Below, in pieces: positions 703 through 16,159 of a stretch of DNA of 64,000 nt. The position numbers and the translations under genes were made by a program. The DNA lies in contig JACPPF010000183.1 of NCBI GenBank assembly GCA_016191165.1, positions 51,428 to 115,427 on the forward strand, written 5' to 3'. A model generated the notes under the pieces. That model searched no databases, was not told the DNA's origin, and was given only the letters and a program-made list of their open reading frames with translations. This DNA comes from Planctomycetota bacterium (GTDB taxonomy: Bacteria; Planctomycetota; Planctomycetia; Gemmatales; Gemmataceae). The stretch's first letter is position 1. Each line of letters begins with the position of its first letter.

Positions 703-1041
703 ATGGCGGCAAAGCGTTATTTGATGAATGCAGGCCGAACCACCAAGCAGGGCCAGCAGATCAACATCGGCAAGGACTCCCCGGAATACCTGGCGCTCAC
801 GACCACCATCTTCATGAATGCCGACGACATGAAAGAGGCCGGCATCACTTCGGGCGTGAACGTGCGGGTCGTCTCCGACAACGGCGAGGCGATCTTTCTG
901 TGCAAGGAAGGCAAGATTCCGGCGGGGATCATCTTCGTCGCCTACGGCCCGCCGACCTGCAAGTTGATGGGCCAAACCACGGACGGAACCGGCATGCCAA
1001 CGTCGAAGGGCTGGGAAGTTGAAGTCGAACCCATCGTTTAG
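703..1041 (+). CDS. fmdD: Formylmethanofuran dehydrogenase subunit D-like (molybdopterin dinucleotide-binding)
   Basis: The 112-residue protein matches the small FmdD/FwdD subunit of archaeal formylmethanofuran dehydrogenase. That subunit forms the C-terminal molybdopterin-guanine-dinucleotide-binding beta-barrel completing the catalytic FwdB subunit. Features recalled from the family are the N-terminal GRTTKQGQ segment, the IGKDSPEY segment, and the late GPPTCKLMGQTTDGTGMP segment. Length is normal for a stand-alone FmdD. It lies 1.6 kb upstream of fhcB on the same strand, separated by two unrelated small genes, so the two products probably form one active site. Many bacterial Fhc complexes are described as inactive in redox, so keeping a cofactor-binding subunit argues for a working molybdenum or tungsten enzyme here. 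The ATG at 703 follows directly on a TGA in the same frame. Confidence 0.8.
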   Translation: MAAKRYLMNAGRTTKQGQQINIGKDSPEYLALTTTIFMNADDMKEAGITSGVNVRVVSDNGEAIFLCKEGKIPAGIIFVAYGPPTCKLMGQTTDGTGMPTSKGWEVEVEPIV

Positions 1042-1300: not shown

Positions 1301-2026
1301 ATGAGCACAACTACATCCACTGAATTGGAAGAAGAACTGGAGAGCAAAAAATTCCAAGACGCCGTTCAGGCGGTGGCATTCCTCACGACTCGCTCAGGCT
1401 CTGATCGGAGGATTTCGCTTCCAAACCCATTTTTAGGAGGCCTGGAGGGGCAGTTCTGGAGGTGGAATAGGATAGCCGGTCAGTTCATTAAACAGGACAA
1501 GGCCGACCAAGCACTTGAGGTATGGTCGGCCATGTACCTCTCTCTTCTGGCGATTCAGGGCCGTTACCACCAGCGATTGCACAAGGGGATGGCGTTGTGC
1601 AACATTGGATATGCCCTAGGTAAAATCCACGGGGAAAGGGCTAACCAAGCCAAAAGTTGGATCCTTGGAATTATCGAGGACATTTTCACGGATGTTGACA
1701 GCGTCGAGGAAGGACTCAATCACAAAAACCTCCTGTCGATGCAGAACGTTACGGCTCCACGAATTCGTCAACTCGTTTCCGCAGTTCGCCTTCGTGTCTT
1801 CGATGAGGCGATAACGCCCTTATTCCCAGAATCGTGTGTCGATTTCATTGTGACGCCCGCGGTTGATGCTCCTTCCATCGTTGCTCTCAAGTATATTGGC
1901 GACCTTCAGTCGTGCATCAATAGCGCCTCCCCGGATTTGCCAAGGGAGGACGGAACGTACTGGAACGTGCTCAAGAAATGCTGGTCGTTCCTGGATTGGT
2001 CAAAGGGGGTGATCAGTGACGACTGA
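1301..2026 (+). CDS. Hypothetical protein, 241 aa
   Basis: Soluble, mostly helical-looking protein with a charged N-terminus (ELEEELESKKFQ) and no signal peptide or membrane segment. The middle part (about residues 60-125) has helix-pair character reminiscent of TPR-like folds (QDKADQALEVWSAMYLSL), but no family is recognised. Base composition is visibly more AT-rich than in the flanking fhc genes, which suggests later insertion between fmdD and fhcB. Its 3' end overlaps the next gene by 11 nt, so the two are probably translationally coupled and may work together. Confidence 0.6.
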   Translation: MSTTTSTELEEELESKKFQDAVQAVAFLTTRSGSDRRISLPNPFLGGLEGQFWRWNRIAGQFIKQDKADQALEVWSAMYLSLLAIQGRYHQRLHKGMALCNIGYALGKIHGERANQAKSWILGIIEDIFTDVDSVEEGLNHKNLLSMQNVTAPRIRQLVSAVRLRVFDEAITPLFPESCVDFIVTPAVDAPSIVALKYIGDLQSCINSASPDLPREDGTYWNVLKKCWSFLDWSKGVISDD

Positions 2027-2441
2027 CCCCAGCGCGAAGGCAGCCGGACCGGAAAAACCCAAATCCCAACCGGTTCCACAGCAGGATGGGCCGACTCGGG
2101 CAAACGTTCCTAAACCCCGTGCGCCGAGGCGGTCCCATGCGGAGGCAGTAGAACGGCATCTTGCCGATCTTCAACAAAGACTTTCCAATCGCGAGCAGGA
2201 AATTGAACGTAATCGAAAAGAACTTGCCGATGCACAGGAACGAGAACGTGCACTCCAGAAACAAATCCTACCATTGTCGAACGCACAGGCAGCGAGAACT
2301 TGGACTTCGTTCTGGCTGGGGTTGCTCATTAGTATTGTTACCGTCGCGATGATCATCGGCGGCGCGTTGATAAGAGGGTGTTTTGCAATTGAACGCTTGT
2401 TCACAACAGGCGCTACTTCAATACGATTTTTCCCCTACTAA
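2016..2441 (+). CDS. Coiled-coil protein with one membrane segment, 141 aa
   Basis: GTG start inside the end of the preceding gene, giving a coupled pair. Residues 1-40 are proline/basic-rich. About 45-90 form a heptad-like charged helix (HLADLQQRLSNREQEIERNR and onward) that should be a coiled coil. About 98-120 (FWLGLLISIVTVAMIIGGAL) form a single transmembrane helix near the C-terminus. The layout suggests a tail-anchored cytoplasmic coiled coil, possibly a membrane tether for the 241-aa partner. No known family is recognised. Composition is AT-richer than the neighbours, as for its partner. Confidence 0.55.
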   Translation: MTTDPSAKAAGPEKPKSQPVPQQDGPTRANVPKPRAPRRSHAEAVERHLADLQQRLSNREQEIERNRKELADAQERERALQKQILPLSNAQAARTWTSFWLGLLISIVTVAMIIGGALIRGCFAIERLFTTGATSIRFFPY

Positions 2442-2651: not shown

Positions 2652-3980
2652 ATGCCTCTAACCATCGTCAAAAACGCCACCTGCACTTTTTGTGGCTGCG
2701 TCTGCGATGACATCGAGTTGCATGCCGACGGTATACGAATCACCGAGACCAAACGAGCGTGCAGCCTCGGCGAATCGTGGTTCAAGAATCACACCGCGGA
2801 ACACCTCTATCCCGACGCGCTGATTGATGGCCATCCCGCCACCGTGGATGACGCGGTTGAGGCCGCCGCCGATTACTTGCTGAACGCGGACATGCCGCTC
2901 GTTTATGGCATGAGCAATATCACCTGTGAGGCTCAGCGGGAAGCGGTGTCGCTGGCCGAGTTGGTTGGCGCGGTTGTCGATAGCCACACCTCGCTCTGAC
3001 ACGGGCCAACCGAGATTGCCGCCCAGTTGGGCGGAAAGGTGACCTGCACGCTGGGCGAAGTGAAAAACCGGGCCGACTTCATGATCTACTGGGGAGGCAA
3101 CCCGGCCGAATGCCACCCCCGGCACTTCACGAAATATTCCCTCACGCAAAAAGGCAAGTTCACGCCCAAGGGACGCAAAGACCGCACCATGGTCCTTGTC
3201 GATATCCGCGAGACTCCCAGCGCCAAGGCGGCCGACGTATTCTTGCAGGTTCGGCCCGGCAAGGACTTCGAACTCGTCACCGCGCTGCGTGCGATCGTCA
3301 AGGGCCAGCGCGTCAACGAGGCCGCCGTCGCCGAGACGGGACTGCCTCTTGAAAAGCTGCACGAGCTCGTCGCCATGATGAAGGCGGCCCGCTTCGGCAT
3401 CATCTTCTTCGGCATGGGCCTGTCGATGACGCGCGGCAAGCACATGAACTCCGCCGCCGTCCTGATGCTCGCCGCCGAGATGAACGCGTTCACGAAATTC
3501 GTGGCCATGCCGATGCGAGGCCACGGCAACGTCACCGGCGCCGATGTCGTCATGCGCTACACGACGGGCTATCCGTTCGGCGTCAACCTGTGCCGTGGGT
3601 ATCCGCGTTTCAATCCTGGCGAGTTTTCGACGGTGGACCTGCTTGTGCGCGGCGACAACGACGCCTGCCTGGTACTCGGCGCCGACCCGGGCGCGACGAT
3701 GCCGCAGCCGGCGATTAACCATCTGGCGCGCATCCCGACGATCACCCTCGATCCCAAGGTTACGCACACGAGCCGGCTATCGCGCGTTCACATCACGACG
3801 GCGGTGACCGGCGTCAGCGCCCCGGGAACCGCGTACCGCATGGACGAGATCCCGCTGCCGTTGCGACCAGCGCTGAAGTCGCCGTACCCGACGGATGAAG
3901 AGGTCGTGCGACGCATTCGCGAGGCAGTCATGCGCCGGCCGGCGTGGCTGCCGGAGCGCAATGCGGAGATGGTGGTGTAG
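2652..3980 (+). CDS. fhcB: Formylmethanofuran dehydrogenase subunit B, predicted selenoprotein (Sec at TGA 2997-2999)
   Basis: Catalytic molybdopterin subunit (FwdB/FmdB/FhcB family, formate dehydrogenase superfamily) that interconverts formate or CO2 and the formyl-carrier. Read with TGA as selenocysteine it is 442 residues. Residues 11-18 (CTFCGCVC) plus Cys37 form the N-terminal [4Fe-4S] motif. Residue 116 is the TGA, in the context TSL-U-HGPT, the Sec/Cys-His-Gly-Pro signature of formate dehydrogenase H and FwdB, where this residue binds Mo or W. The frame continues without any shift for a further 326 codons of clear FwdB sequence (IYWGGNPAECHPRH, FGMGLSMTRG, RGHGNVTGADVV). A SECIS-like hairpin follows the TGA. 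The Methylobacterium FhcB is reported to have lost these residues, so this one should be redox-active. Start at ATG 2652 is chosen because it precedes the iron-sulfur motif by the usual short distance. A nonsense mutation is the alternative but explains neither context nor hairpin. Confidence 0.88.
3019..3034 (+). promoter_or_regulatory. Predicted bacterial SECIS element of fhcB
   Basis: A perfect 6-bp G/C stem (CCGCCC / GGGCGG) carries the 4-nt loop AGTT. Loop base G3026 and the following T match the G-U expected in a bacterial apical loop read by SelB. The first loop base is 26 nt after the last base of the TGA, inside the range usual for bacterial SECIS elements. A weaker outer helix (3009-3011 with 3038-3040) can extend it. 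It lies within the coding region, as is normal in bacteria. Confidence 0.75.
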
Positions 3981-4010
3981 CGCGCGGATAAGATGAAAGG
4001 AGGGTGTTCC

Positions 4011-4367
4011 ATGGTCAGCGAAATCACGCTAATCGATAAGGGCCGAGGACTGCAGCTCTCAACGAGCCGCATTACGGTGATGGACTTGGTCCAGTACTTC
4101 AAACATGATTGGTCCTACGAAGAAATCATGCAGTGGATTCCTTCGCTGACTCGCGAAGAGATCGCTGTGGTCGAAGCATACTATCGCGAACACAAGAACG
4201 AGCTGGACGAGGAAGATCGAAAGATCGACGAGTATCGCGAAGAGCAAGCACGGCTTCAGGCCCTCCGTTTCCCGATTCCCGACGAAACCAGGGAGGAAAA
4301 ACTTGCTCGCTTCCGGAAGTTGCTGAAGGCGCGTGAGGAGAAAAACGGTGAAGGGAATCCTCGCTGA
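4011..4367 (+). CDS. DUF433-type antitoxin, module 1
   Basis: The 118-residue product opens with a DUF433 helix-turn-helix-like domain (about residues 1-60: STSRITVMDLVQYFKHDWSY, then MPS/IPSLTREEI). A long charged helical tail follows (65-118) that is likely to bind the toxin. DUF433 proteins usually act as DNA-binding antitoxins of PIN-like toxins. ATG 4011 is chosen because AAAGGAGGG lies just upstream; an earlier in-frame ATG (3993) lies before this site. It starts 30 nt after fhcB and overlaps the next gene by 20 nt, typical of a coupled toxin-antitoxin pair. A paralogue sits at 11188. Confidence 0.8.
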   Translation: MVSEITLIDKGRGLQLSTSRITVMDLVQYFKHDWSYEEIMQWIPSLTREEIAVVEAYYREHKNELDEEDRKIDEYREEQARLQALRFPIPDETREEKLARFRKLLKAREEKNGEGNPR

Positions 4368-4764
4368 TGCCAACATCACCGGCCCGATCGAATCGCTCGT
4401 CCACCAGATGCAATCCGGTACGTGGGTCGAGTTCTGGACGGCGCTCGGTCTGCAATTCAAACGATTCGACGACTTGGGGCTGTCGCCGGATGCGTCCGAC
4501 TTCACCGTCTGGCAGACTTGCCAATCCGAGCATTTAATTCTGATTACCGCCAATCGCAATAAGAAGTCTGCGGATTCCCTGGAAGAGACGATTCTTCAGT
4601 ACAATCAGCCTGATAGCCTACCGGTGTTTACAATCTCTAATATGGAAGCGTTTGGCGCTAGCCGAACCTACGCGGAAAAGGTTCTGGAGCATCTGTACGA
4701 TTACCTGCTGCGCATCGACGAATTCCGCGGCACCGGGCGGTTGTATTTGCCGCAGAAGCAATAG
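4348..4764 (+). CDS. PIN-like toxin candidate, module 1
   Basis: The 138-residue protein begins VKGILADANI, with an acidic residue early on beta-strand 1 as in PIN/DUF5615-like RNases. The central LILITANRN segment (about residues 68-76) fits the conserved strand with T/S-x-N. It ends with YDYLLRIDEFRGTGRLYLP, which is almost identical in the second module. GTG 4348 is chosen because of GAGGAG at 4337-4342 and because the paralogue uses the same GTG in the same GAGAAAAACGGTG context. Paired with the DUF433 gene it is best read as a type II toxin, but not all catalytic acids can be placed with confidence. Confidence 0.65.
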   Translation: MKGILADANITGPIESLVHQMQSGTWVEFWTALGLQFKRFDDLGLSPDASDFTVWQTCQSEHLILITANRNKKSADSLEETILQYNQPDSLPVFTISNMEAFGASRTYAEKVLEHLYDYLLRIDEFRGTGRLYLPQKQ

Positions 4765-4814: not shown

Positions 4815-5240
4815 ATGACGCATTTCCTTGATGAGTGGCTGATTCGAAAACGTGGTCGTCCGTTGCTCTCGATACGAGAGGCGAGGACATCGCGTTTCAA
4901 GTATACGCGACAACTAGGAGCGCGCGGCCATTTTGCCGTAGTTCAACTTCGAGGTGAGCCAGCCAGTGATTTCGCGTTCCGATCCCGCGTAAACTGGCTG
5001 GTACGAGGAGCGGATTACTCCACCGCCGTGCTGGACGGGATCCTCGACGAACTATTCGCGTCTAACCTTGGGCATGTCGTAGCGAAAGTTCACTTTACAC
5101 TGGAAGCGATCGAATGGCACGAAGTGGATTCCTGCGCGGTCGCGTTCTACCACGCGGCTCGTGGTGCCGTGCGTGAAATCCTCGGACTTGATACCTACAA
5201 AGATCATAACGTAGAATTACCCTACCCAAGGCGAGATTAG
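4815..5240 (+). CDS. Hypothetical protein, 141 aa
   Basis: Soluble protein without signal peptide or transmembrane segment. It is basic at the N-terminus (IRKRGRPLLSIREARTSRFK) and has a mixed alpha/beta central part. No motif is recognised. It follows toxin module 1 by 50 nt on the same strand and ends six bases before the fhcA remnant, so it may be cargo associated with the module. ATG 4815 is the first start in the frame; there is no strong ribosome-binding site. Confidence 0.5.
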   Translation: MTHFLDEWLIRKRGRPLLSIREARTSRFKYTRQLGARGHFAVVQLRGEPASDFAFRSRVNWLVRGADYSTAVLDGILDELFASNLGHVVAKVHFTLEAIEWHEVDSCAVAFYHAARGAVREILGLDTYKDHNVELPYPRRD

Positions 5241-5399: not shown

Positions 5400-5468
5400 T
5401 AAGGAATTACGTCAATTGGGTGAAGATAATTAATGCTGAAAATCGAATGCCCTCCTCAAAATACCCGC

Positions 5469-6611
5469 ATGAAATCGCACTATGACGTCGCCGTGGTCGG
5501 CGCCGGGGTTCTCGGTTTGGCGCACGCCTACCACCTGGCACGCCGCGGCTTGAAGACCGTGGTCTTCGAACGCACGCCGCACGCCCGGGGCGCGTCGGTG
5601 CGCAACTTCGGCATGTTGTGGCCCATCGGTCAGCCACCCGGCCCGCGCTATCGGCTGGCGCGGCGCAGTCTGGAGATCTGGCGCGAAGTCCTGCAAGCCA
5701 GTGGCCTTTGGTACGATTCGACCGGCTCGCTCCACCTGGCATACCATGACGACGAGGCGCAAGTCCTTGACGAATTCGTCCATCTTGCCGGCGACGATTG
5801 CTCCGTTTCACTCCTTGACGCTTCGGCGGTCACCAGGCGATTCCCCGCGCTAAACCCGGAAGGCCTGCGCGGCGGCATGTGGAGCGACACCGAGGTGACC
5901 GTCGATCCGCGCCAGGTCATCGCCGGTTTGCCAGGCTGGCTAAACCGAACGCTCGCCATCGATTTCGTGTTCGGCACGTCCGTGCTTGGCTATGATCGGC
6001 CGGTAATACGGACCACGGGCCCGGAATGCCGGGCTGACCGCCTGGTGGTATGCACCGGCGCCGATTTTCGTGAGCTGGCGCCGCAGTCCTTCGCCGAGGC
6101 GGGATTGGTCCCGTGCAAGCTGCAGATGATGCGCTCGGCGCCTTATGGTCCCGAATTCCGCGTTGGCACCATGCTCGCCGCCGGCCTGACGCTGCGCCAT
6201 TATCAGGCTTTTTCCGCGTGTCCGAGCTTGCCCGCCTTGATTCAGCGCTTCGATTCCGAAATGCCCGAGTATGGCAAGTTCGGCATTCATGTGCTGCTGT
6301 CGCAAAACGGCCTCGGTGAACTGGTGATCGGCGATTCCCATGAATATGGCGCGGCGATTTCGCCGTTCGACAATTCACGTATCGACGAACTGGTCTTACA
6401 ATACCTGCGGACGTTCATCAACATTCCGGACCTACGCATTGCCGCGCGCTGGCATGGCGTCTATGTCAAGCATCCAACGGACCTCTACGTGGTGGCGCAT
6501 CCCCAGCCCGGGATGATGGCGGTGACCGGCGTCGGCGGCGCTGGCATGACCCTCTCGTTCGGGCTCGCGGAGCAGACCATCCATGCGTGGCTTGGAGATT
6601 CTCATGGTTGA
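5469..6611 (+). CDS. FAD-dependent oxidoreductase of phosphonate gene clusters (HpnW/PbfD-like)
   Basis: A DAO-family flavoenzyme of 380 residues with the N-terminal dinucleotide-binding motif VVGAGVLGLAHAYHLARRG (about residues 9-27) and a C-terminal GVGGAGMTLSFGLAE segment contacting FAD. The size and the partner gene match the phosphonate-cluster subgroup TIGR03364, proposed to oxidise an aminophosphonate (2-aminoethylphosphonate derivatives, for example N-methylated forms) at the C-N bond. The phosphonatase-like gene overlaps its end by 8 nt, so the two are coupled. ATG 5469 directly precedes the Rossmann strand; an ATG at 5433 would add 12 residues. Substrate is inferred from context, not from active-site residues. 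Confidence 0.75.
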   Translation: MKSHYDVAVVGAGVLGLAHAYHLARRGLKTVVFERTPHARGASVRNFGMLWPIGQPPGPRYRLARRSLEIWREVLQASGLWYDSTGSLHLAYHDDEAQVLDEFVHLAGDDCSVSLLDASAVTRRFPALNPEGLRGGMWSDTEVTVDPRQVIAGLPGWLNRTLAIDFVFGTSVLGYDRPVIRTTGPECRADRLVVCTGADFRELAPQSFAEAGLVPCKLQMMRSAPYGPEFRVGTMLAAGLTLRHYQAFSACPSLPALIQRFDSEMPEYGKFGIHVLLSQNGLGELVIGDSHEYGAAISPFDNSRIDELVLQYLRTFINIPDLRIAARWHGVYVKHPTDLYVVAHPQPGMMAVTGVGGAGMTLSFGLAEQTIHAWLGDSHG

Positions 6612-7281
6612 CCTGGTCGTTTTCGATATGGCGGGGACCACGGTATACGACGGTGACGCCGTCAGCGATTCGTTTCGCGCGGCCCTGTCGGCGGTCGGCG
6701 TCGTTCCCGACCCGATCGCGGTCAACAACGTCATGGGCCTCCACAAGCCAGAGGCGATTCGCATCCTGCTCGCGGCGGCTGGCCGTACCGTTTCAGACCA
6801 GGTCGTCGATGCCATTCACGCCGACTTCGTTCAGCGCATGACACATTATTACAAGACCGATCCCGCAGTCCGGGAAGTGCCCGGGGCCGCCGCGGTTTTC
6901 AGACAACTCCGCGCGGCTGGAATCAAGGTCGCGCTCAACAGCGGGTTCAGCCGAGGAATTGTGGACGTGATTCTCGATCGGCTGGGCTGGACGCACGCCA
7001 TCGACGCCAGTGTCGCCAGCGATGAGGTGCCGAAAGGCAGGCCCGATCCCGCGATGATTCGCACGCTGATGCAAAAGCTCAACCTCCAGGACGCGGGCCG
7101 AGTCGCCAAGGTCGGTGACACACCGGTCGATCTGGCGGAAGGTTTCGCGGCCGGCTGCGGCGTGGTGATCGGCGTCACCACGGGAAGCTTCAGCCGAGCC
7201 CAACTCGAAGAGCATCGGCACACCCGCATCCTGGATTCGGTTATCCTGTTGCCGGATTTGCTGCTTCACGCGCCCGCCTGA
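6604..7281 (+). CDS. Phosphonatase-like HAD hydrolase (TIGR03351 type)
   Basis: HAD-superfamily phosphohydrolase of 225 residues. Motif I is VFDMAGTTVYD (nucleophile Asp, with MAGTT as in phosphonoacetaldehyde hydrolases), motif II is the Ser in LNSGFSRG, and the late acidic motif is KVGDTPVDLAEG. It is shorter than PhnX and fits the subgroup seen beside HpnW-type oxidases, proposed to split the C-P bond of the oxidised aminophosphonate and release phosphate. ATG 6604 has GGAG upstream and overlaps the oxidase stop, showing a two-gene operon. The matching HD oxygenase and alcohol dehydrogenase lie 9 kb away on the other strand. Confidence 0.78.
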   Translation: MVDLVVFDMAGTTVYDGDAVSDSFRAALSAVGVVPDPIAVNNVMGLHKPEAIRILLAAAGRTVSDQVVDAIHADFVQRMTHYYKTDPAVREVPGAAAVFRQLRAAGIKVALNSGFSRGIVDVILDRLGWTHAIDASVASDEVPKGRPDPAMIRTLMQKLNLQDAGRVAKVGDTPVDLAEGFAAGCGVVIGVTTGSFSRAQLEEHRHTRILDSVILLPDLLLHAPA

Positions 7282-7450
7282 TGCTCGATTATTCGCGCTC
7301 TCTTTCGTACAATGATCCCAGGTGCGACGCGCGTCCAGTTTTCGCGTCGGCGCGATCCTACACGTTTCCGGCTGCCTCGAAAACGTCACGTCTGGCTACG
7401 AAAAGACTCCGTAACAAGTGTCGCCCGGGCCACTTACCAAGGAGCCAGTG

Positions 7451-8932
7451 ATGTGGACGAAGAAAGCCCTGCACAATCTCATCGAGGAAAAACTCCAGAA
7501 CCACCAGTTGATTGTCGTCGCCAATCGCGAGCCGTACATTCATCGCTTCGCGGGCGATCAGGTCGAGTGCATCAAGCCGGCCAGCGGCATGACCACGGCG
7601 CTGGATCCGATATTGCAGGCCTGTGGCGGGACCTGGGTAGCGCACGGAAGTGGCAACGCCGACCGCCATTCCGTGGACACCAAAAATCAAGTGCGTGTAC
7701 CTCCCGAGAACCCCAGTTATACACTCCGCCGCGTCTGGCTAACCAAAAAACAAGAACAGGGCTACTACTATGGCCTCGCCAATGAAGGGCTTTGGCCTTT
7801 GTGCCACGTCGCGTTTACGCGCCCCACCTTCAATCCGGCTGATTGGGAAATTTATCGGGAGGTCAACCAGCTCTTTGCCAAGGCGGTCCTGGAGGATGCG
7901 AATGACAAACCCGCGTTCGTCTTCATCCAGGATTACCATTTTGCTCTTCTGCCGCGCATGTTAAAAATGGCCAATCCCAACCTCATCGTCGCCCAATTCT
8001 GGCATATTCCCTGGCCCAACCGGGAAATCATGCGCGTTTTTCCCTGGGGCGAAGAGATGCTCGACGGCCTGCTGGGCAACGACCTGCTCGGCTTTCACCT
8101 GCGTCACCATTGCCAAAACTTTCTCGACACCGTTGACCGCGCCATCGAGGCGAAGGTGGATCAAGAGAACTCGCAGATCACCTGTGGTGGAAAGCTGACC
8201 GTCGTCCGCCCGTTTCCCATCAGCATCGACTACGACGCCCACGTTGAGCTGGCACAGACCGCCAAGGTTGAAAACGAAATGGCACGCTGGCGTCTTCGCA
8301 TTGGCCTCAAGGACAAACTCCTCGGGATCGGCATTGAACGTCTGGACTATACCAAGGGCATTCCGGAGCGACTGCGTGCAATCGATTATTTTCTGGAGCA
8401 CAACGCGGAATATCGGGAACGCCTGGTGTTCGTGCAAATTGCCGTGCCCAGTCGGGCGCACATTCCGCAGTATCAACGCCTCGACGAGGAGGTCGATCGC
8501 ATCACCGAGCAAATCAACTGGAAATGGAGCACGGATGACTGGCGCCCCATTTTGCTTCTGAAGGAACACCACAACCAGATCGAAATGATCGCGCTACACC
8601 GGCTGGCGAATTTTTGCATCGTCAGTTCCTTGCACGACGGCATGAACCTCGTGGCCAAGGAGCACGTCGCCAGCCGTTGCGACGAGGATGGCGTGTTGAT
8701 CCTGAGCCAGTTCACGGGGACCGCTCGCGAGTTGACCGATGCCCTGCTGGTGAATCCCTATTCCATGGAGGCCATGGCGGACGCCATTCGCCTGGCCCTT
8801 GAGTTGCCAGAAAGCGAACGGTGTAAACGCATGCAAAAAATGCGCGCCGCCGTCGCAAATAACAACATCTACCGCTGGGCGGGAAAGGTGTTCTCTGCCC
8901 TGGTGCGTTTCGATTTTCCCGAGGATGTTTGA
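7451..8932 (+). CDS. otsA: Trehalose-6-phosphate synthase
   Basis: GT20 glycosyltransferase of 493 residues transferring glucose from UDP-glucose to glucose-6-phosphate. It shows the N-terminal donor loop VVANREPYIH, the HDYH-like segment QDYHFALLPRML, FHLRHHCQNF, the IERLDYTKGIPERL motif and the C-terminal SLHDGMNLVAKE motif that binds the nucleotide sugar. Length is typical. ATG 7451 is chosen because AAGGAG lies directly upstream; an extended GTG start at 7418 precedes that site. It is followed by otsB, so the pair makes trehalose, an osmoprotectant. The 7282-7450 gap should hold the promoter, but no certain boxes are seen. Confidence 0.92.
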   Translation: MWTKKALHNLIEEKLQNHQLIVVANREPYIHRFAGDQVECIKPASGMTTALDPILQACGGTWVAHGSGNADRHSVDTKNQVRVPPENPSYTLRRVWLTKKQEQGYYYGLANEGLWPLCHVAFTRPTFNPADWEIYREVNQLFAKAVLEDANDKPAFVFIQDYHFALLPRMLKMANPNLIVAQFWHIPWPNREIMRVFPWGEEMLDGLLGNDLLGFHLRHHCQNFLDTVDRAIEAKVDQENSQITCGGKLTVVRPFPISIDYDAHVELAQTAKVENEMARWRLRIGLKDKLLGIGIERLDYTKGIPERLRAIDYFLEHNAEYRERLVFVQIAVPSRAHIPQYQRLDEEVDRITEQINWKWSTDDWRPILLLKEHHNQIEMIALHRLANFCIVSSLHDGMNLVAKEHVASRCDEDGVLILSQFTGTARELTDALLVNPYSMEAMADAIRLALELPESERCKRMQKMRAAVANNNIYRWAGKVFSALVRFDFPEDV

Positions 8933-9000
8933 CCGACGCGCTGCTTCCACCGTGGCCCACGCATCTGGGTCCACAATGGTTTCGCTTCAGGAGTGTTGCC

Positions 9001-9855
9001 GTGAGTTTGCCATTCTTTGACGACTTGCCAAATCTGACTGAGCGGCTCGTCAGCGCAGTCCACCTCGACGTTTTTTTGGACTTTGACGGCACGTTGGCTC
9101 CCCTGGTGGAGCACCCGGCGGATGCCAGTTTACCAGCGGTGACCAGGCGCCTGCTCGAAGCCCTTGCCACCGAGCCAAACGTCACGCTTGCCATCATCAG
9201 CGGTCGCGCCATCGATGACGTGGAGCATCGCCTCGGGATCGAGAATATTTTTTATTCCGGCAATCATGGCCATGAAATTCGCGACGCCGCGTTGCGCTTC
9301 CAGGCGCCCATCCCGGCGTCAGCACAGGCGGCTATGCGCGCTTTGGCCGGCACGTTGACGAAACGATTTCAAACCACGTCGGGCGTCCTGGTCGAGGACA
9401 AGGGGCCGACGATTAGCATTCACTATCGGCTGGCGCCGGAAGCCGAGTGGCCTGGCATCGCTCGCATGGTTCAGGAGGACCTGAAGGCGGCGAAACACCC
9501 GTTTCGCATCACCCACGGCAATAAGGTTTACGAAATCCGCGCCAGCACGGAGTGCGACAAGGGGACGGCATGCCGCTGGCTTTGCGAACAAATCGGCCAA
9601 GACGCATTGCCAATCTACGTGGGCGACGACGCGACCGACGAGGACGCGTTCGCCGCGCTGCCCGAGGGCATCACCGTTCGCGTCAAGCCGAGCGGAGTCA
9701 CGCTTGCCACGCATCACCTCGACGACCAGGCGGATGTGAATCGTTTCCTGAGCTGGCTTGCCGCCACGGTCAAACGCGTAGGTGAGCCCAAGACAAGGGT
9801 GCAGAGCAGGCCGGGCCAAGCGGGGACCAGCAACGCCATCGCGAACCTTTTGTGA
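9001..9855 (+). CDS. otsB: Trehalose-6-phosphate phosphatase
   Basis: HAD-type phosphatase of 284 residues. Motif I is FLDFDGTLAPLVEHP with the nucleophilic Asp, then IISGRAIDDVE, SGNHGHEIRD, DKGTACRWL and the acid-rich YVGDDATDEDAF motif that binds magnesium. It removes phosphate from trehalose-6-phosphate made by the preceding otsA product. GTG 9001 is preferred because of CAGGAG at the correct spacing. A TTG overlapping the otsA stop (8929) would add 24 residues lacking family similarity. Either way the genes form an operon. Confidence 0.9.
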   Translation: MSLPFFDDLPNLTERLVSAVHLDVFLDFDGTLAPLVEHPADASLPAVTRRLLEALATEPNVTLAIISGRAIDDVEHRLGIENIFYSGNHGHEIRDAALRFQAPIPASAQAAMRALAGTLTKRFQTTSGVLVEDKGPTISIHYRLAPEAEWPGIARMVQEDLKAAKHPFRITHGNKVYEIRASTECDKGTACRWLCEQIGQDALPIYVGDDATDEDAFAALPEGITVRVKPSGVTLATHHLDDQADVNRFLSWLAATVKRVGEPKTRVQSRPGQAGTSNAIANLL

Positions 9856-11187: not shown

Positions 11188-11565
11188 ATGAAAACCGATG
11201 AAATCCAGATTGTCGATCACGGCCGCGGGCCTCAGCTATCGACCAGCCGGATCACCGTGCTGGATGTGTTTTTCTACCTGCACCGCGGCTACGACTTTGA
11301 TTTCATTCACCGCGCCATGCCGAGTCTGACGGCTGAGGAATTTGCAGCGCTCGTCGCCTATGTCGAGGTTCACCGTGACGAACTCGTGGAGCAAGACCGG
11401 CGTGCTGAGGAATTTCACCGGCGCGGCATGGAGGCCCAACACGCCCGCGGCGGGATCTTCGCGGCGAGCGACGAAACGCTTACCACCGAGGAACGGATTG
11501 CCCGCCTGAAGGAAAAAATGAGGGCGCGCTTGACGGAGAAAAACGGTGCCCGTCATTCTGATTGA
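11188..11565 (+). CDS. DUF433-type antitoxin, module 2
   Basis: Paralogue of the 4011 gene, 125 residues. The DUF433 domain covers about residues 1-60 (GRGPQLSTSRITVLDVFFYL, MPSLTAEEFAALV) and is followed by a charged helical tail. It overlaps the downstream toxin gene by 20 nt, the same overlap as in module 1. The product should bind both operator DNA and the toxin. Two diverged copies within 7.2 kb, both beside fhc genes, suggest local duplication or two independent acquisitions of the same system. Confidence 0.8.
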   Translation: MKTDEIQIVDHGRGPQLSTSRITVLDVFFYLHRGYDFDFIHRAMPSLTAEEFAALVAYVEVHRDELVEQDRRAEEFHRRGMEAQHARGGIFAASDETLTTEERIARLKEKMRARLTEKNGARHSD

Positions 11566-11953
11566 CACAAACATCGAGGGCCACGGCGCTCACATCTGGA
11601 TGCACATGAGAACCGCCACGTGGCAAGATCTGACCGATGCCCTCGGTGTAACGATGCGTCAATTTTGCGATGTCGGTCTCGACGCAGCCTCCCCTGACGA
11701 TGTCGTATGGCGTTTTTGCCAGGCAGAAGAGTTCTATTTGCTGACCAGCAACCGTAATGAGGAATCGGATAATTCTCTTGAAGCAACGTTGCGTCGCGAA
11801 GGTACGCCGACGAGCCTGCCTGTGATCACACTGCCATTGCCTGACCGCGTTTTCCAAAGCTCCTCCTTTTGTGATCGTGTGGTGGAAAAACTCTTCGACT
11901 ACTTGCTATACGCCGAGAACATCCGCGGAGCGGGAAGACTTTATTTGCCATGA
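11546..11953 (+). CDS. PIN-like toxin candidate, module 2
   Basis: The 135-residue protein begins VPVILIDTNIEGHGAHIWMH: the acidic LIDTN motif at the very start is a PIN-domain hallmark. The LLTSNRNEESDNSLEATL segment matches LITANRNKKSADSLEETI of module 1, and the end YLLYAENIRGAGRLYLP is also shared. GTG 11546 is used, with GGAG 11 nt upstream. It converges on fhcC, whose stop is only 30 nt away, so it lies tail to tail with the C1 gene. Predicted to be an RNase toxin neutralised by the DUF433 partner. Confidence 0.68.
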   Translation: MPVILIDTNIEGHGAHIWMHMRTATWQDLTDALGVTMRQFCDVGLDAASPDDVVWRFCQAEEFYLLTSNRNEESDNSLEATLRREGTPTSLPVITLPLPDRVFQSSSFCDRVVEKLFDYLLYAENIRGAGRLYLP

Positions 11954-11983: not shown

Positions 11984-12790
11984 TCATCCGACATTCCACA
12001 CCAAAATCTCCCCATGCCCCGGCACCGACGAGTCGCCGCAGTAACGCTCGTACATCCCGTCATGCGGAATCGAAAGCCCAAGCAACTTGAGGTGTTTGGC
12101 ATACAGGCCAAGGAACGTGGGATCGTAAGAACACGAATAGGAGAAGGTCGGCAACAGCTTGAGCGGCTTCATGGACACGATGGTGCCGCGAAACATCCAG
12201 GCGCCGGTGCGGATCTCGGCGCCGCTCATGAGGAAGATGGTCCCGCCCTTCATTTGCAGGCCGGCGAAGTCACGCGCCACGCCGCCGATGACGATGATGC
12301 CGCGTTTCATGCGCATGCCGACTTCGAGCCCCGCGGCCCCGCCGACGAGGATGGCGCCGCCGTTCATACCGGCCAAACTGCCGCGATAGGCGGCGCCGAC
12401 CTGCCCGCCGGCATTGCCCGCGATGCGGATCAGGCCATTCCTCATCTCGGCGCCGACCCAGTCCGAAGCGTTGCCGGTGACCTCGATGGTCCCGCCTTTC
12501 ATGTAAGCACCCAGGTGCATGCCCACGTTACCGTGGATCTTGATGTGGCCGCGCGTCATGGCCCGGCCGATCCACTTGACCTTGGCGAGGTCGCCGTGGA
12601 TTTCGAGGTGATCGCTGGCGGCGCCATCCACGTCGAAGAAATCATCGAGCCGAACCTGGCGCTTGCCGAGGAAGACGGGCAACGCGCGGATGGCGTCGTT
12701 GGCCAGGCCGACCATGTGATCGGGGTTGATGTGCTCGGCTTCGAGCGGGACGTTCGGTTGTTGTTTGAGGGTGAGGGTGATGCTGCTCAT
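11984..12790 (-). CDS. fhcC: Formylmethanofuran dehydrogenase subunit C
   Basis: The 268-residue protein has the repeated G-x-x-x-x-x-x-G-x-x-x-x-G pattern of the right-handed beta-helix found in FwdC/FhcC and the GltB C-terminal domain. About seven turns are visible between residues 70 and 200 (MTRGHIKIHGNVG, MKGGTIEVTGNA, MRNGLIRIAGNAG, MNGGAILVGGAAG, MKRGIIVIGGVARD, MKGGTIFLMSGAE). In the archaeal and methylotroph complexes this subunit is the scaffold holding A, B and D. It lies downstream of an antitoxin-like gene (11 nt gap) on the minus strand in the same direction as fhcA. Five genes now separate A from C. Confidence 0.88.
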   Translation of the reverse strand: MSSITLTLKQQPNVPLEAEHINPDHMVGLANDAIRALPVFLGKRQVRLDDFFDVDGAASDHLEIHGDLAKVKWIGRAMTRGHIKIHGNVGMHLGAYMKGGTIEVTGNASDWVGAEMRNGLIRIAGNAGGQVGAAYRGSLAGMNGGAILVGGAAGLEVGMRMKRGIIVIGGVARDFAGLQMKGGTIFLMSGAEIRTGAWMFRGTIVSMKPLKLLPTFSYSCSYDPTFLGLYAKHLKLLGLSIPHDGMYERYCGDSSVPGHGEILVWNVG

Positions 12791-14394: not shown

Positions 14395-16017
14395 CTACAA
14401 ATCCCGCACCTGCATCCCATGCACGCGCTCTGCCTCCACCGGGTAATTCTCGAACGACATCGTGTAGTATTGCTGGAACCACGGCTTCAAATAATCCTCG
14501 ATCGTTTCATCGTAGGCCGGCTTGACGACGAACTCCCGGCCCTGGCGCACATTACGGATATCGCCTTCCTCGACGACAATCTCGCCATCCTTGATGACGT
14601 AACGCGGATAGCGGAACATGTGCTCGCCGTCAGGATTTTGGTTGAAGATTGCGATATCCGCGTCGGCCCCAATGCCCAGATGCCCCTTGTGCGGCAACCC
14701 CAGCGCGCGGGCTGGGCCGGCGGAGGTGATGATGGCGATTTCGTAAAGCGAATACTCCCGATTCAGATCGGCGAGCACGATGCGCGACAGCGCCTTGGGC
14801 GGCAGCTTCTTGACTCGCTCCTTGCGGAAATCAGCATTCATCAAGAGGTGTACGATTTCCGGGTAACGCCAAAAGCAGGCGCCGTTGGGGTGATCGGTGG
14901 TCAGGAAGATGCGCCAGGGATCGTCGATCAACAAGAGCAACTCCAGGCCGACCGCCCATTGCACGGCATTGACGAGGTTCGAGCCCTTGTAGGTATAGGG
15001 GACGATGCCGCAGCCGGTCTCGTTTTCGACATCGAGGTTGCCCCACTTGCGACCCGTGAGTTGATAGAGCAGGTGCTGCCACGGTCCGTCGGCGGTGATG
15101 GTGACGGCGTTGCCGAAGAGGACGGCGCCGGCGTCGCAGGTGAGGTTCTTGTGTTGGTTGAAGTAGTCGGCGATCTGGGTCGCCTCGGAGCGCATCGAAT
15201 GCCAGTCATCGCCGCCGTAGGCGTGAAATTGCAAATGGGCCATGTGGGCGCGATGCCCTTCGAGGACCTTCATGGTTTCGAGTGTGGTTGCGACGTTGCC
15301 CGGCGCGCCCAGGTTGTTGCAGTGCAGATGCAGCGGGTGCGGCAGGTTCATCTCGTCGATCATCCTGGCGAGATTGCCGACAATCATCGACGGGGTGAGC
15401 TTGCCATAGCCATGAACGGGCTCGGCCATCTGCTTGGCGTCCTTGCCCCACTTCCAGGCGGTGACGCCGCCGGGGTTGACGGCCTTGACGCCATAGGCCT
15501 TGGCCGCCCAGATCATCCAGGCGACGACGTGCTTGGCCCGCTCGTAATCGCCGGCCTCCAGAAGATCCATCACGATCTCGTTGTTGGCCATCAAAAGGCA
15601 ACAGGTCTTGTCCACGATGGGCGTGTCGCGCAACTCCTCGTGCGTGTGTTTGGCGGAGAGCACGGGCACGGCCGCCTCGTTGACCGTGGTGTAGCCCATG
15701 CCCGCGTAGAGGTAGCCGGTCGCGAATGTGGTCGGCGTCGGTCCGCCAATGCCGGCGCGCGTCTCGGCGGTGCGCATGAACTTGGCGGCGACGCGCTGAT
15801 TCTCCGGCGTCATCGCCCGCGCGAAGTTGAGCGCCCCGCCCGCGACATGCGTGTGAATATCGACGCCGCCGGGGAAGACGATCATGCCGGTGGCGTCGAT
15901 AGTGCGTCCGCCCTGGGCATCGGCGACGATCTTGCCGTTGTCGATGAAGATGTCCTTGATGACGCCGTCGATGTTATTGGCGGGGTCGTAGACTTTTCCG
16001 CCGATGATGCGAAGCAT
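14395..16017 (-). CDS. fhcA: Formylmethanofuran dehydrogenase subunit A (amidohydrolase)
   Basis: 540-residue metal-dependent amidohydrolase, the subunit that hydrolyses or forms formyl-methanofuran-type amides using formate from subunit B. It shows MLRIIGGKVYDPANNIDGVI at the start, the binuclear-metal motif PGGVDIHTHVAGG, HLHCNNLGAPGN, and the late TTDHPNG motif carrying the catalytic Asp/His. The C-terminal GHLGIGADADIAIFNQNPDG segment is typical of the family. ATG 16017 is chosen because the conserved MLRI start aligns with archaeal FwdA and with the fragment at 5247; a longer frame to 16080 adds unrelated residues. With FhcB, FhcC and FmdD in this window, the formyltransferase subunit FhcD is the member not seen. 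Confidence 0.92.
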   Translation of the reverse strand: MLRIIGGKVYDPANNIDGVIKDIFIDNGKIVADAQGGRTIDATGMIVFPGGVDIHTHVAGGALNFARAMTPENQRVAAKFMRTAETRAGIGGPTPTTFATGYLYAGMGYTTVNEAAVPVLSAKHTHEELRDTPIVDKTCCLLMANNEIVMDLLEAGDYERAKHVVAWMIWAAKAYGVKAVNPGGVTAWKWGKDAKQMAEPVHGYGKLTPSMIVGNLARMIDEMNLPHPLHLHCNNLGAPGNVATTLETMKVLEGHRAHMAHLQFHAYGGDDWHSMRSEATQIADYFNQHKNLTCDAGAVLFGNAVTITADGPWQHLLYQLTGRKWGNLDVENETGCGIVPYTYKGSNLVNAVQWAVGLELLLLIDDPWRIFLTTDHPNGACFWRYPEIVHLLMNADFRKERVKKLPPKALSRIVLADLNREYSLYEIAIITSAGPARALGLPHKGHLGIGADADIAIFNQNPDGEHMFRYPRYVIKDGEIVVEEGDIRNVRQGREFVVKPAYDETIEDYLKPWFQQYYTMSFENYPVEAERVHGMQVRDL

Positions 16018-16159
16018 GCGTTTGGGTTCTCGCCATGATGAATCAGGGAAATTCGACGCTGTAATTGTAGTAGTTGTCACGTCCTCGGATTCTTCAAACG
16101 GCGCCCGCTGCCGTTATCAAATGGAACCCCGCGAGAATCCGTACTGTCTCGATTTGACC

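What the first reader, a model, noticed from the sequence alone, without database searches (positions are those of the whole stretch)
2652..3980. Selenocysteine-containing bacterial formylmethanofuran dehydrogenase (FhcB) with intact catalytic signature
The frame runs through TGA 2997-2999 at residue 116, and the next residues are His-Gly-Pro-Thr. Formate dehydrogenase H and methanogen FwdB have Sec or Cys followed by His-Gly-Pro at this Mo/W-binding position. An N-terminal [4Fe-4S] Cys motif and a separate FmdD subunit are also present. The best-known bacterial FhcB (Methylobacterium) is described as lacking these residues and acting only in hydrolysis. This planctomycete enzyme therefore looks like a true Sec-dependent dehydrogenase or CO2 reductase within an H4MPT-type C1 system.
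Basis: partly seen in the sequence, partly recalled or inferred. Interest (0 to 1): 0.93.

Follow-up and report, generated by a model that had tools for sequence, protein, structure and literature searches.

The report
Bacterial selenocysteine formylmethanofuran dehydrogenase subunit
This bacterial gene has a UGA codon and a following RNA hairpin that its close relatives keep; it is predicted to make a selenium enzyme that likely turns the last one-carbon intermediate of formaldehyde breakdown into carbon dioxide, and a gene of this kind was already reported in a related bacterium.

Summary
Frame 2652-3980 reads through TGA 2997-2999 (codon 116) as a full-length FmdB/FwdB (TIGR03129, 503 bits). 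The Sec reading is strong. All 80 named relatives returned (best 80 of 167 found) have TGA there. The downstream hairpin is the most synonymously constrained stretch of the gene (CAG, TTG invariant in 81 of 81). Codons after the TGA are under purifying selection. The genome holds SelA, SelB and tRNA-Sec(UCA); SelD is missing from this assembly but present in all six genus mates. Metal-site and FeS residues and FmdD, FmdA, FmdC are kept; Fae, a methylene-H4MPT dehydrogenase, Mch and Ftr are elsewhere in the genome. Best reading: a catalytically competent Sec-dependent formylmethanofuran (methylofuran) dehydrogenase ending formaldehyde oxidation at CO2. Activity, direction and electron acceptor are inferred; no ferredoxin gene lies nearby, and an FdhF/YdeP-family protein could alternatively oxidise released formate. 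It is not new in kind: a planctomycete fmdB selenoprotein with operon D-B-A-C was reported in 2016 (PMC4807772). Added here: SECIS evidence, clade-wide constancy, FmdD tracking the metal ligand, decay of the ligand to Thr/Ser/Gly in kin, and loss of the FmdA gate lysine.

The parts
2652..3980 (+). fmdB (FwdB/FhcB family) with in-frame UGA
   Evidence: TIGR03129 503 bits when TGA is read as U; solved relatives 9sfi_Q, 8rja_B, 5t5i_B aligned over nearly full length
2997..2999 (+). UGA codon 116, predicted selenocysteine; aligns with Cys118 of 5T5I B and with X (unnamed residue, which I take as Sec) of 9sfi_Q
3018..3035 (+). predicted bacterial SECIS hairpin, stem 3018-3024 / 3029-3035 (outermost pair G-A in the window), loop AGUU 3025-3028
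   Evidence: 98.5% of stem cells paired in 76 unique Sec sequences, 28.8-56.8% when slid by 1-3 columns; codons 125 and 126 invariant in 81 of 81
2682..2762 (+). four Cys (C11, C14, C18, C37) of the predicted [4Fe-4S] site
   Evidence: aligned with solved FwdB chains
3516..3518 (+). Arg289, aligned with Arg288 of 5T5I B
703..1041 (+). fmdD, molybdopterin-dinucleotide-binding subunit
   Evidence: NF042908 E 3.9e-22, below its cut-off; PF01568 over cut-off; 5t5i_D E 1.4e-16
11984..12790 (-). fmdC
   Evidence: TIGR03122 258 bits, over cut-off; 5t5i_C, 9sw6_K and others
14395..16080 (-). fmdA amidohydrolase subunit; metal-ligand residues kept (H76, H78, K199, H251, H253, H282, H286, D396), Ala83 at the place of gate Lys64; true start may be further in
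   Evidence: TIGR03121 703 bits, over cut-off; alignments; residue tally

Best explanation
The frame 2652-3980 is an fmdB gene whose UGA codon 116, present in all 80 named relatives returned, is very likely read as selenocysteine, and its product would work with FmdA, FmdC and FmdD as a formylmethanofuran (methylofuran) dehydrogenase that likely ends formaldehyde oxidation at CO2. Shown by sequence: the open frame on both sides of the UGA, its conservation, the constrained hairpin, the presence of tRNA-Sec, SelA and SelB, the metal-site and FeS residues, the D, A and C subunits, and Fae, a methylene-H4MPT dehydrogenase, Mch and two Ftr genes in the same genome. Inferred: SelB with Sec-tRNA binds the hairpin and inserts Sec at the UGA; Sec116 ligates Mo or W held between FmdB and FmdD; Ftr hands the formyl group to the furan carrier; the FmdA binuclear site hydrolyses it to formate; formate passes inside the complex to FmdB and is oxidised to CO2; electrons leave by the [4Fe-4S] cluster to an acceptor not yet known.
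For: TGA at the same codon in 80 of 80 named loci returned, and a TGA-containing copy at 77% identity or more in 46 of 102 genomes of the order (position checked at codon 116 for 34 of the 46). Synonymous constraint peaks in the hairpin: codons 125, 126, 124 and 123 rank 1, 2, 3 and 8 of 226, and the lowest of 92 six-codon windows is 123-128. Purifying selection is alike before and after the UGA: median dN/dS 0.142 and 0.155 over 172 close pairs. tRNA-Sec 73 bits with anticodon TCA, SelB 362 bits, SelA 560 bits. In the 46 Sec genomes SelB is over cut-off in 44 and SelD in 41 (my count over). The site aligns with Cys118 of 5T5I and with X of 9sfi. FmdD adjoins Sec copies in 48 of 48 loci with enough flank, Cys-HGPS copies in 14 of 14, and decayed or HAPS copies in 0 of 21 (my tally over). 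H4MPT genes. In 26 of the 46 Sec genomes no non-Sec FmdB copy is listed (my count over).
Against: No SelD over cut-off in this 95%-complete assembly; the three weak hits read as ThiL, HypE and PurM. No ferredoxin-like partner gene near FmdB in 80 loci, so the acceptor is unknown. The FmdA gate lysine of archaeal FMD is Ala or Ser in 65 of 65 Sec-locus FmdA that adjoin fmd genes. The genome has an FdhF/YdeP-family oxidoreductase over cut-off (678 bits, C106) that might oxidise released formate instead. The hairpin is only modestly better than synonymous recodings (median fraction as stable 0.098; 13 of 76 at 0.05 or less), the window alone folds no better than shuffles, and Rfam has no match. 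No protein, activity or metal data exist here.
Confidence: 0.75

Rival explanations
1. Sec is inserted, but the complex still works like Methylobacterium Fhc: FmdA hydrolyses the formyl carrier, formate is released, and FmdB is a scaffold or a slow side activity; another enzyme oxidises the formate.
For: Bacterial FhcB is described as lacking Mo/W-bisPGD and serving as scaffold (PMC10100899 passages). No electron partner gene lies nearby. The gate lysine is lost. Kin at 62-70% identity have lost the ligand. An FdhF/YdeP-family protein is in the genome.
Against: In the order's genomes, copies that lost the ligand have no adjacent FmdD (0 of 21), whereas Sec copies keep it in 48 of 48. A UGA that needs Sec insertion is kept in 80 of 80 named loci returned, which makes little sense for a dead site. 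FeS and Arg residues are kept.
Confidence: 0.16
2. It runs in reverse as a CO2 reductase that feeds formyl-H4MPT for carbon fixation or biosynthesis.
For: The chemistry runs toward CO2 reduction in methanogen FMD (PMC11656701 section read). The assembly holds hydrogenase-maturation ORFs that I read as HypA, HypB, HypD and HypE (locus L020).
Against: Reduction needs a donor near -0.5 V such as ferredoxin (PMC11656701 section read), and no ferredoxin-like partner lies near FmdB in 80 loci. Fae and a methylene-H4MPT dehydrogenase sit together, which fits formaldehyde oxidation.
Confidence: 0.06
3. The TGA is a real stop, a sequencing error or a pseudogene mark, and no full-length selenoprotein is made.
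For: SelD was not found in this assembly. TGA is the ordinary stop of 15 of the 26 window ORFs that I took as genes.
Against: TGA in 80 of 80 named loci; dN/dS of 0.06-0.12 after the TGA; hairpin constraint; SelB and tRNA-Sec present.
Confidence: 0.03

Closest known systems
Planctomycete P2 (Rhodopirellula) fmdB selenoprotein and Lake Washington fosmid homologue (PMC4807772; section 17 and passages seen)
   Same: Predicted Sec at the FmdB metal site in a planctomycete; operon fmdD-fmdB-fmdA-fmdC; Gly homologues in other planctomycetes noted there.
   Different: P2 is said to carry Sec and Cys forms; here only the Sec form was found. In that main text the word formaldehyde does not occur and tetrahydromethanopterin is counted once, seen in a reference title. 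Here the operon is split: D and B near each other, C and A about 8 kb further on, on the other strand.
Archaeal FwdB/FmdB (5T5I with Cys; 9sfi with X at the site)
   Same: Ligand position, the following His-Gly-Pro, Arg289, FeS cysteines, and A, B, C, D subunits.
   Different: No polyferredoxin nearby; FmdA Ala/Ser in place of gate Lys64; hairpin just downstream of the UGA in the reading frame, whereas archaeal SECIS lie in the 3' UTR (PMC1088965 passages).
Bacterial formyltransferase/hydrolase complex Fhc (Methylobacterium; PDB 6S6Y by recall)
   Same: H4MPT-linked formaldehyde oxidation; homologous A, B, C and Ftr (FhcD) subunits.
   Different: FhcB is described as lacking the Mo/W cofactor (PMC10100899 passages); 6S6Y_B matches the query only at E 2.7e-12. 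Here the ligand codon and FmdD are present.

Membership tests
Formylmethanofuran dehydrogenase FmdB/FwdB (TIGR03129) | Full-length match over curated cut-off | tested here: met
   503 bits, cut-off 327.8, model 1-421
Formylmethanofuran dehydrogenase FmdB/FwdB (TIGR03129) | Sec or Cys metal ligand followed by His-Gly-Pro | tested here: met
   UGA then HGPT, aligned with Cys118 of 5T5I and X of 9sfi
Formylmethanofuran dehydrogenase FmdB/FwdB (TIGR03129) | FmdD, FmdA and FmdC partners | tested here: met
   FmdD is below its NCBIfam cut-off
Formylmethanofuran dehydrogenase FmdB/FwdB (TIGR03129) | Electron-transfer subunit (FwdG/FwdF type) | tested here: not met
   No ORF with two ferredoxin motifs in 80 loci of 3.2-17.3 kb; 5 of 80 have a single-motif ORF, none a likely partner by my reading. 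Genes elsewhere in the genome were not searched.
Formylmethanofuran dehydrogenase FmdB/FwdB (TIGR03129) | Mo/W-bisPGD bound, CO2/formyl redox activity | not testable with these tools
   needs protein
Bacterial selenoprotein | In-frame UGA conserved in relatives | tested here: met
   80 of 80 named loci returned, of 167 found
Bacterial selenoprotein | SECIS hairpin just downstream with a G in a small apical loop | tested here: met
   loop AGUU, stem 98.5% paired; criterion as in PMC1088965 passages
Bacterial selenoprotein | SelA, SelB, SelD and tRNA-Sec in the genome | tested here: inconclusive
   SelA, SelB, tRNA-Sec found; SelD not found in this assembly but over cut-off in 6 of 6 genus mates
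Fhc formyltransferase/hydrolase complex | FhcB without metal ligand and no FmdD-type subunit | tested here: not met
   ligand codon and FmdD present

The most novel reading that the evidence does not exclude
A planctomycete-centred FmdB lineage swapped Cys for Sec inside bacteria, evolving its own bacterial SECIS, while FmdA lost the lysine gate, giving a third kind of complex: an oxidative, polyferredoxin-free formylmethylofuran dehydrogenase that makes CO2 where methylotrophs' Fhc makes formate. Its sister lines decay the ligand to Thr, Ser, Gly or Arg, so many steps from dehydrogenase to scaffold can still be seen.
Probability: 0.43. Interest if true: 0.68.

Novelty: new member of a known kind. 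Interest (0 to 1): 0.5.

Why it matters
If the activity is as inferred, planctomycetes oxidise formaldehyde fully to CO2 on H4MPT with a selenoenzyme, rather than releasing formate as Methylobacterium does. That bears on how archaeal-type C1 genes are used in bacteria and on how the scaffold-only FhcB arose. There is also a practical warning: of the 120 best database proteins listed (of 6265 found), 92 begin after the Sec codon, so this enzyme is often annotated as a truncated fragment.

Tried and rejected
Real stop or pseudogene: rejected on conservation, selection and hairpin. General reassignment of UGA: rejected, since TGA ends 15 of 26 window ORFs taken as genes. A Sec copy without Sec machinery in G050 looked odd, but its TGA is at codon 435, the end of the match, as are those of G018 and G092 (codons 428 and 427); the second copy of G019 shows no in-frame stop in that alignment. 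Rfam search for SECIS: nothing. Folding of 60 nt in the window alone: z -0.57, uninformative; the signal appears only in the comparison. Loss of the gate lysine as proof of oxidative direction: rejected, because 8rja (recalled to be the oxidative ethanotroph enzyme of PMC11656701) keeps Lys, and Lys is also kept beside two FmdB copies that lost the ligand (L189, L200). 'No formate dehydrogenase in the genome': dropped, because an FdhF/YdeP-family protein is over its cut-off. Sec ancestral to the whole bacterial group versus one Cys-to-Sec gain: the tree favours one gain by parsimony, but the sister group's support is weak (81/29) and the root was drawn at the midpoint.

Full report
Observation. 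Window 2652-3980 (+) is one frame of 442 codons with a single internal TGA at 2997-2999, codon 116, followed by His-Gly-Pro-Thr. Read with TGA as U it matches TIGR03129, formylmethanofuran dehydrogenase subunit B, at 503 bits against a cut-off of 328. ARAGORN finds no tRNA gene in the window. TGA is otherwise an ordinary stop here: it ends 15 of 26 window ORFs that I took as genes.

Sec machinery. The genome (G000, 7.2 Mb, 183 contigs, 95% complete) has tRNA-Sec at 73 bits, which ARAGORN calls tRNA-SeC with anticodon TCA; SelB at 362 bits; and SelA at 560 bits. SelD is not found: three hits below cut-off read as ThiL, HypE and PurM from their ORFs and neighbours (my reading). All six genus mates have SelD over cut-off, so a gap in this assembly is the likeliest cause; that is an inference. 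Over 102 genomes of the order, 46 carry a TGA-containing FmdB at 77% identity or more. For 34 of the 46 I checked that the TGA is at codon 116. Of the 46, SelB is over cut-off in 44 and SelD in 41 (my count over); the two genomes without SelB (G014, G049) are 65% and 75% complete. SelB is also over cut-off in 41 of the 56 genomes without such a copy (85 of 102 in all), so the machinery alone does not predict Sec-FmdB.

Conservation. In GTDB species genomes 175 stretches matched a pattern and 167 encode a relative; the best 80 were returned and the other 87 were not seen. All 80 have TGA at codon 116, with motif HTSL-U-HGPTE in 79 and HSSL-U-HGPSE in one, L090. Titles are mostly Planctomycetota (Gemmataceae, Pirellulaceae, one Phycisphaeraceae); five contigs are labelled Acidobacteria and two Candidatus Kuenenia, by record title only. 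dN/dS for the window against seven relatives is 0.045-0.105 before and 0.063-0.122 after the TGA; over 172 close pairs the medians are 0.142 (pairs with a value) and 0.155.

SECIS. In 81 genes the third positions of codons 125 (CAG) and 126 (TTG) never vary, although CTG, CTC and TTG are all common for Leu elsewhere in these genes. Among 226 testable sites codons 125, 126, 124 and 123 rank 1, 2, 3 and 8 in synonymous constraint, and the lowest of 92 six-codon windows is 123-128. These codons form a seven-pair hairpin at +21 to +38 from the U of the UGA, with loop AGUU. Stem cells are 98.5% paired in 76 unique sequences, against 28.8-56.8% when slid by 1-3 columns and 54.5% in 38 unique non-Sec relatives. 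The 24-nt folding energy is -13.4 against -4.7 kcal/mol (p 5e-18, without correction for relatedness). Changes in the stem are nearly all one-sided G-C/G-U swaps, so there is little true covariation. Against the reading, a synonymous-recoding null is only modestly exceeded (median fraction 0.098; 13 of 76 at 0.05 or below), the window alone has z -0.57, and Rfam has no match. A small apical loop containing G is a stated bacterial SECIS feature (PMC1088965, passages). In the non-Sec relatives that keep Leu at codon 126 the codon is CTC or CTT, never TTG.

Active site. Solved relatives are 9sfi_Q, 8rja_B, 5t5i_B, 9sw6_J and 7bkb_H, all aligned over most of the protein. Codon 116 aligns with Cys118 of 5T5I and with X in 9sfi (which I take as Sec; the file does not name it). 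Arg289 aligns with Arg288, and the four N-terminal cysteines align. FmdA (14395-16080, minus) keeps the aligned His, Lys and Asp ligands, as do all 66-67 FmdA matches in Sec loci. It has Ala at the place of Lys64, the proposed formate gate (PMC11656701, section read). At that place Sec loci show Ala in 48, Ser in 17 and Lys in 1 of 66 matches; the one Lys is a second, 46%-identical copy in L053, so the 65 adjoining FmdA are all Ala or Ser. FmdA beside five Cys-type FmdB have Lys in 5 of 5; of the rest, Lys is also beside two FmdB that lost the ligand (L189, L200), Gly is beside a Ser-type (L173), and Ala is in L168, L181 and L195. That the gate is open for an oxidative flow is a guess; 8rja, recalled to be the oxidative ethanotroph enzyme, keeps Lys.

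Genes. FmdD is at 703-1041, FmdC at 11984-12790 (-), FmdA at 14395-16080 (-). In 48 Sec loci with at least 3 kb upstream and 5 kb downstream, D is present in 48, A in 45, C in 43 and Ftr in 19, mostly ordered D-B-A-C (the script passed over L055 and L061, whose tandem copies merged). By residue, adjacent FmdD goes with Sec 48 of 48, Cys in the HGPS context 14 of 14, and none of 21 copies with Gly, Thr, Ser, Asn, Ala, Glu, Gln, a gap, or Cys in the HAPS context (my tally over; Fisher p 4e-20, which ignores relatedness). Of the 40 fetched stretches five were left out of that tally: L168, whose contig is short, the tandem loci L177, L195 and L196, and the Sec locus L181. A divergent or distant D could have been missed. 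No ORF with two ferredoxin motifs was found in any of 80 loci of 3.2-17.3 kb; five have a single motif, and none looks like a partner to me.

Pathway. The genome has Fae beside a PF09176 methylene-H4MPT dehydrogenase, Mch beside an MptN-like ligase (below the MptN cut-off), and two Ftr genes. No formate dehydrogenase alpha (TIGR01591) is over cut-off. The best such hit (566 bits, cut-off 666) has no His-Gly-Pro after its Cys and looks like a nitrate-reductase type by reading. But an FdhF/YdeP-family oxidoreductase (678 bits, over cut-off, C106) is present, and a DMSO-reductase-like protein below cut-offs (C69); the first could oxidise formate if formate were released. In 26 of the 46 Sec genomes no non-Sec FmdB copy is listed (G093 has parts of a second Sec copy); 20 also have a non-Sec copy (my count over).

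Relatives and evolution. Among the 120 best of 6265 database proteins, 92 align only after the site; of the 28 others 11 have Cys, 9 Thr, 5 Ser, and one each Gly, Arg and Tyr (the last with the next residues missing). In a 97-row tree the bacterial Sec rows form one group with the Arg and Tyr rows nested inside (96/96), beside a Thr/Ser/Cys/Gly/Gln group (81/29), with Cys rows and a Gly-rich group outside; the archaeal row with X falls with archaea. One Cys-to-Sec gain in bacteria is the shortest history but not proven.

Prior art. PMC4807772 (section 17 and passages seen) reports fmdB as a predicted selenoprotein in Rhodopirellula P2 and two unclassified bacteria, with operon D-B-A-C and Gly homologues in other planctomycetes. 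Searches for other reports (one search showed 25 of 56 papers) listed no other paper that, from its title or the start of its abstract, treats bacterial Sec-FmdB; the 2026 review PMC13188914 (passages) speaks of methanogens for FwdB. PMC10100899 (passages) counts 149 bacterial FwdB (27% of that family) and ascribes them to transfer from archaea.

Verdict. The Sec reading is close to certain (about 0.95, my estimate); a functional dehydrogenase is likely (about 0.8); oxidative direction is likely. It is a new member of a known kind.

Noticed in passing
L055 6619-7872, L061 6547-7848; P0004, P0007-P0009, P0011, P0031, P0035, P0036, P0055, P0067, P0076, P0083 and others: FmdB relatives at 52-70% identity carry Thr, Ser, Gly or Arg at the metal site; two loci have a Thr copy in tandem before the Sec copy. 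A Thr ligand would be unusual for this superfamily (recalled).
   Followed up: partly
L062 2011-3309 and 3487-4779: Sec copy followed directly by a Cys copy of FmdB, which could be a selenium-responsive isoenzyme pair.
   Followed up: no
window 14395-16080, residue 83 of FmdA: Gate lysine (Lys64 of archaeal FwdA) is Ala or Ser in the 65 FmdA adjoining Sec copies but Lys in 5 of 5 beside Cys-type FmdB.
   Followed up: partly
P0001 (417 aa): Sec-clade FmdB lacking about 25 residues from just after the Sec position through the SECIS region; a deletion or an annotation artefact.
   Followed up: no
order genomes: SelD occurs in two forms even within the genus: about 365-390 aa frames with one internal TGA, and about 760-810 aa frames without (likely a fusion).
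   Followed up: no
window 1301-2441: Two ORFs without a family match over cut-off lie between fmdD and fmdB; in the nearest relative L022 the two genes start 628 bases apart, so this looks like an insertion.
   Followed up: partly
window 3993-4764 and 11188-11953: Two DUF433-type ORFs, each overlapped by a small ORF (DUF5615-like, just below cut-off, in the first; no family in the second), perhaps toxin-antitoxin-like pairs, flank the split fmd genes.
   Followed up: no
window 4815-5240: Stand-alone ORF matching only EF-G domain IV (PF03764).
   Followed up: no
window 5433-7281: TIGR03364 FAD oxidoreductase followed by a HAD hydrolase, possibly phosphonate use; trehalose genes (GT20, trehalose-phosphatase) follow at 7418-9855.
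   Followed up: no
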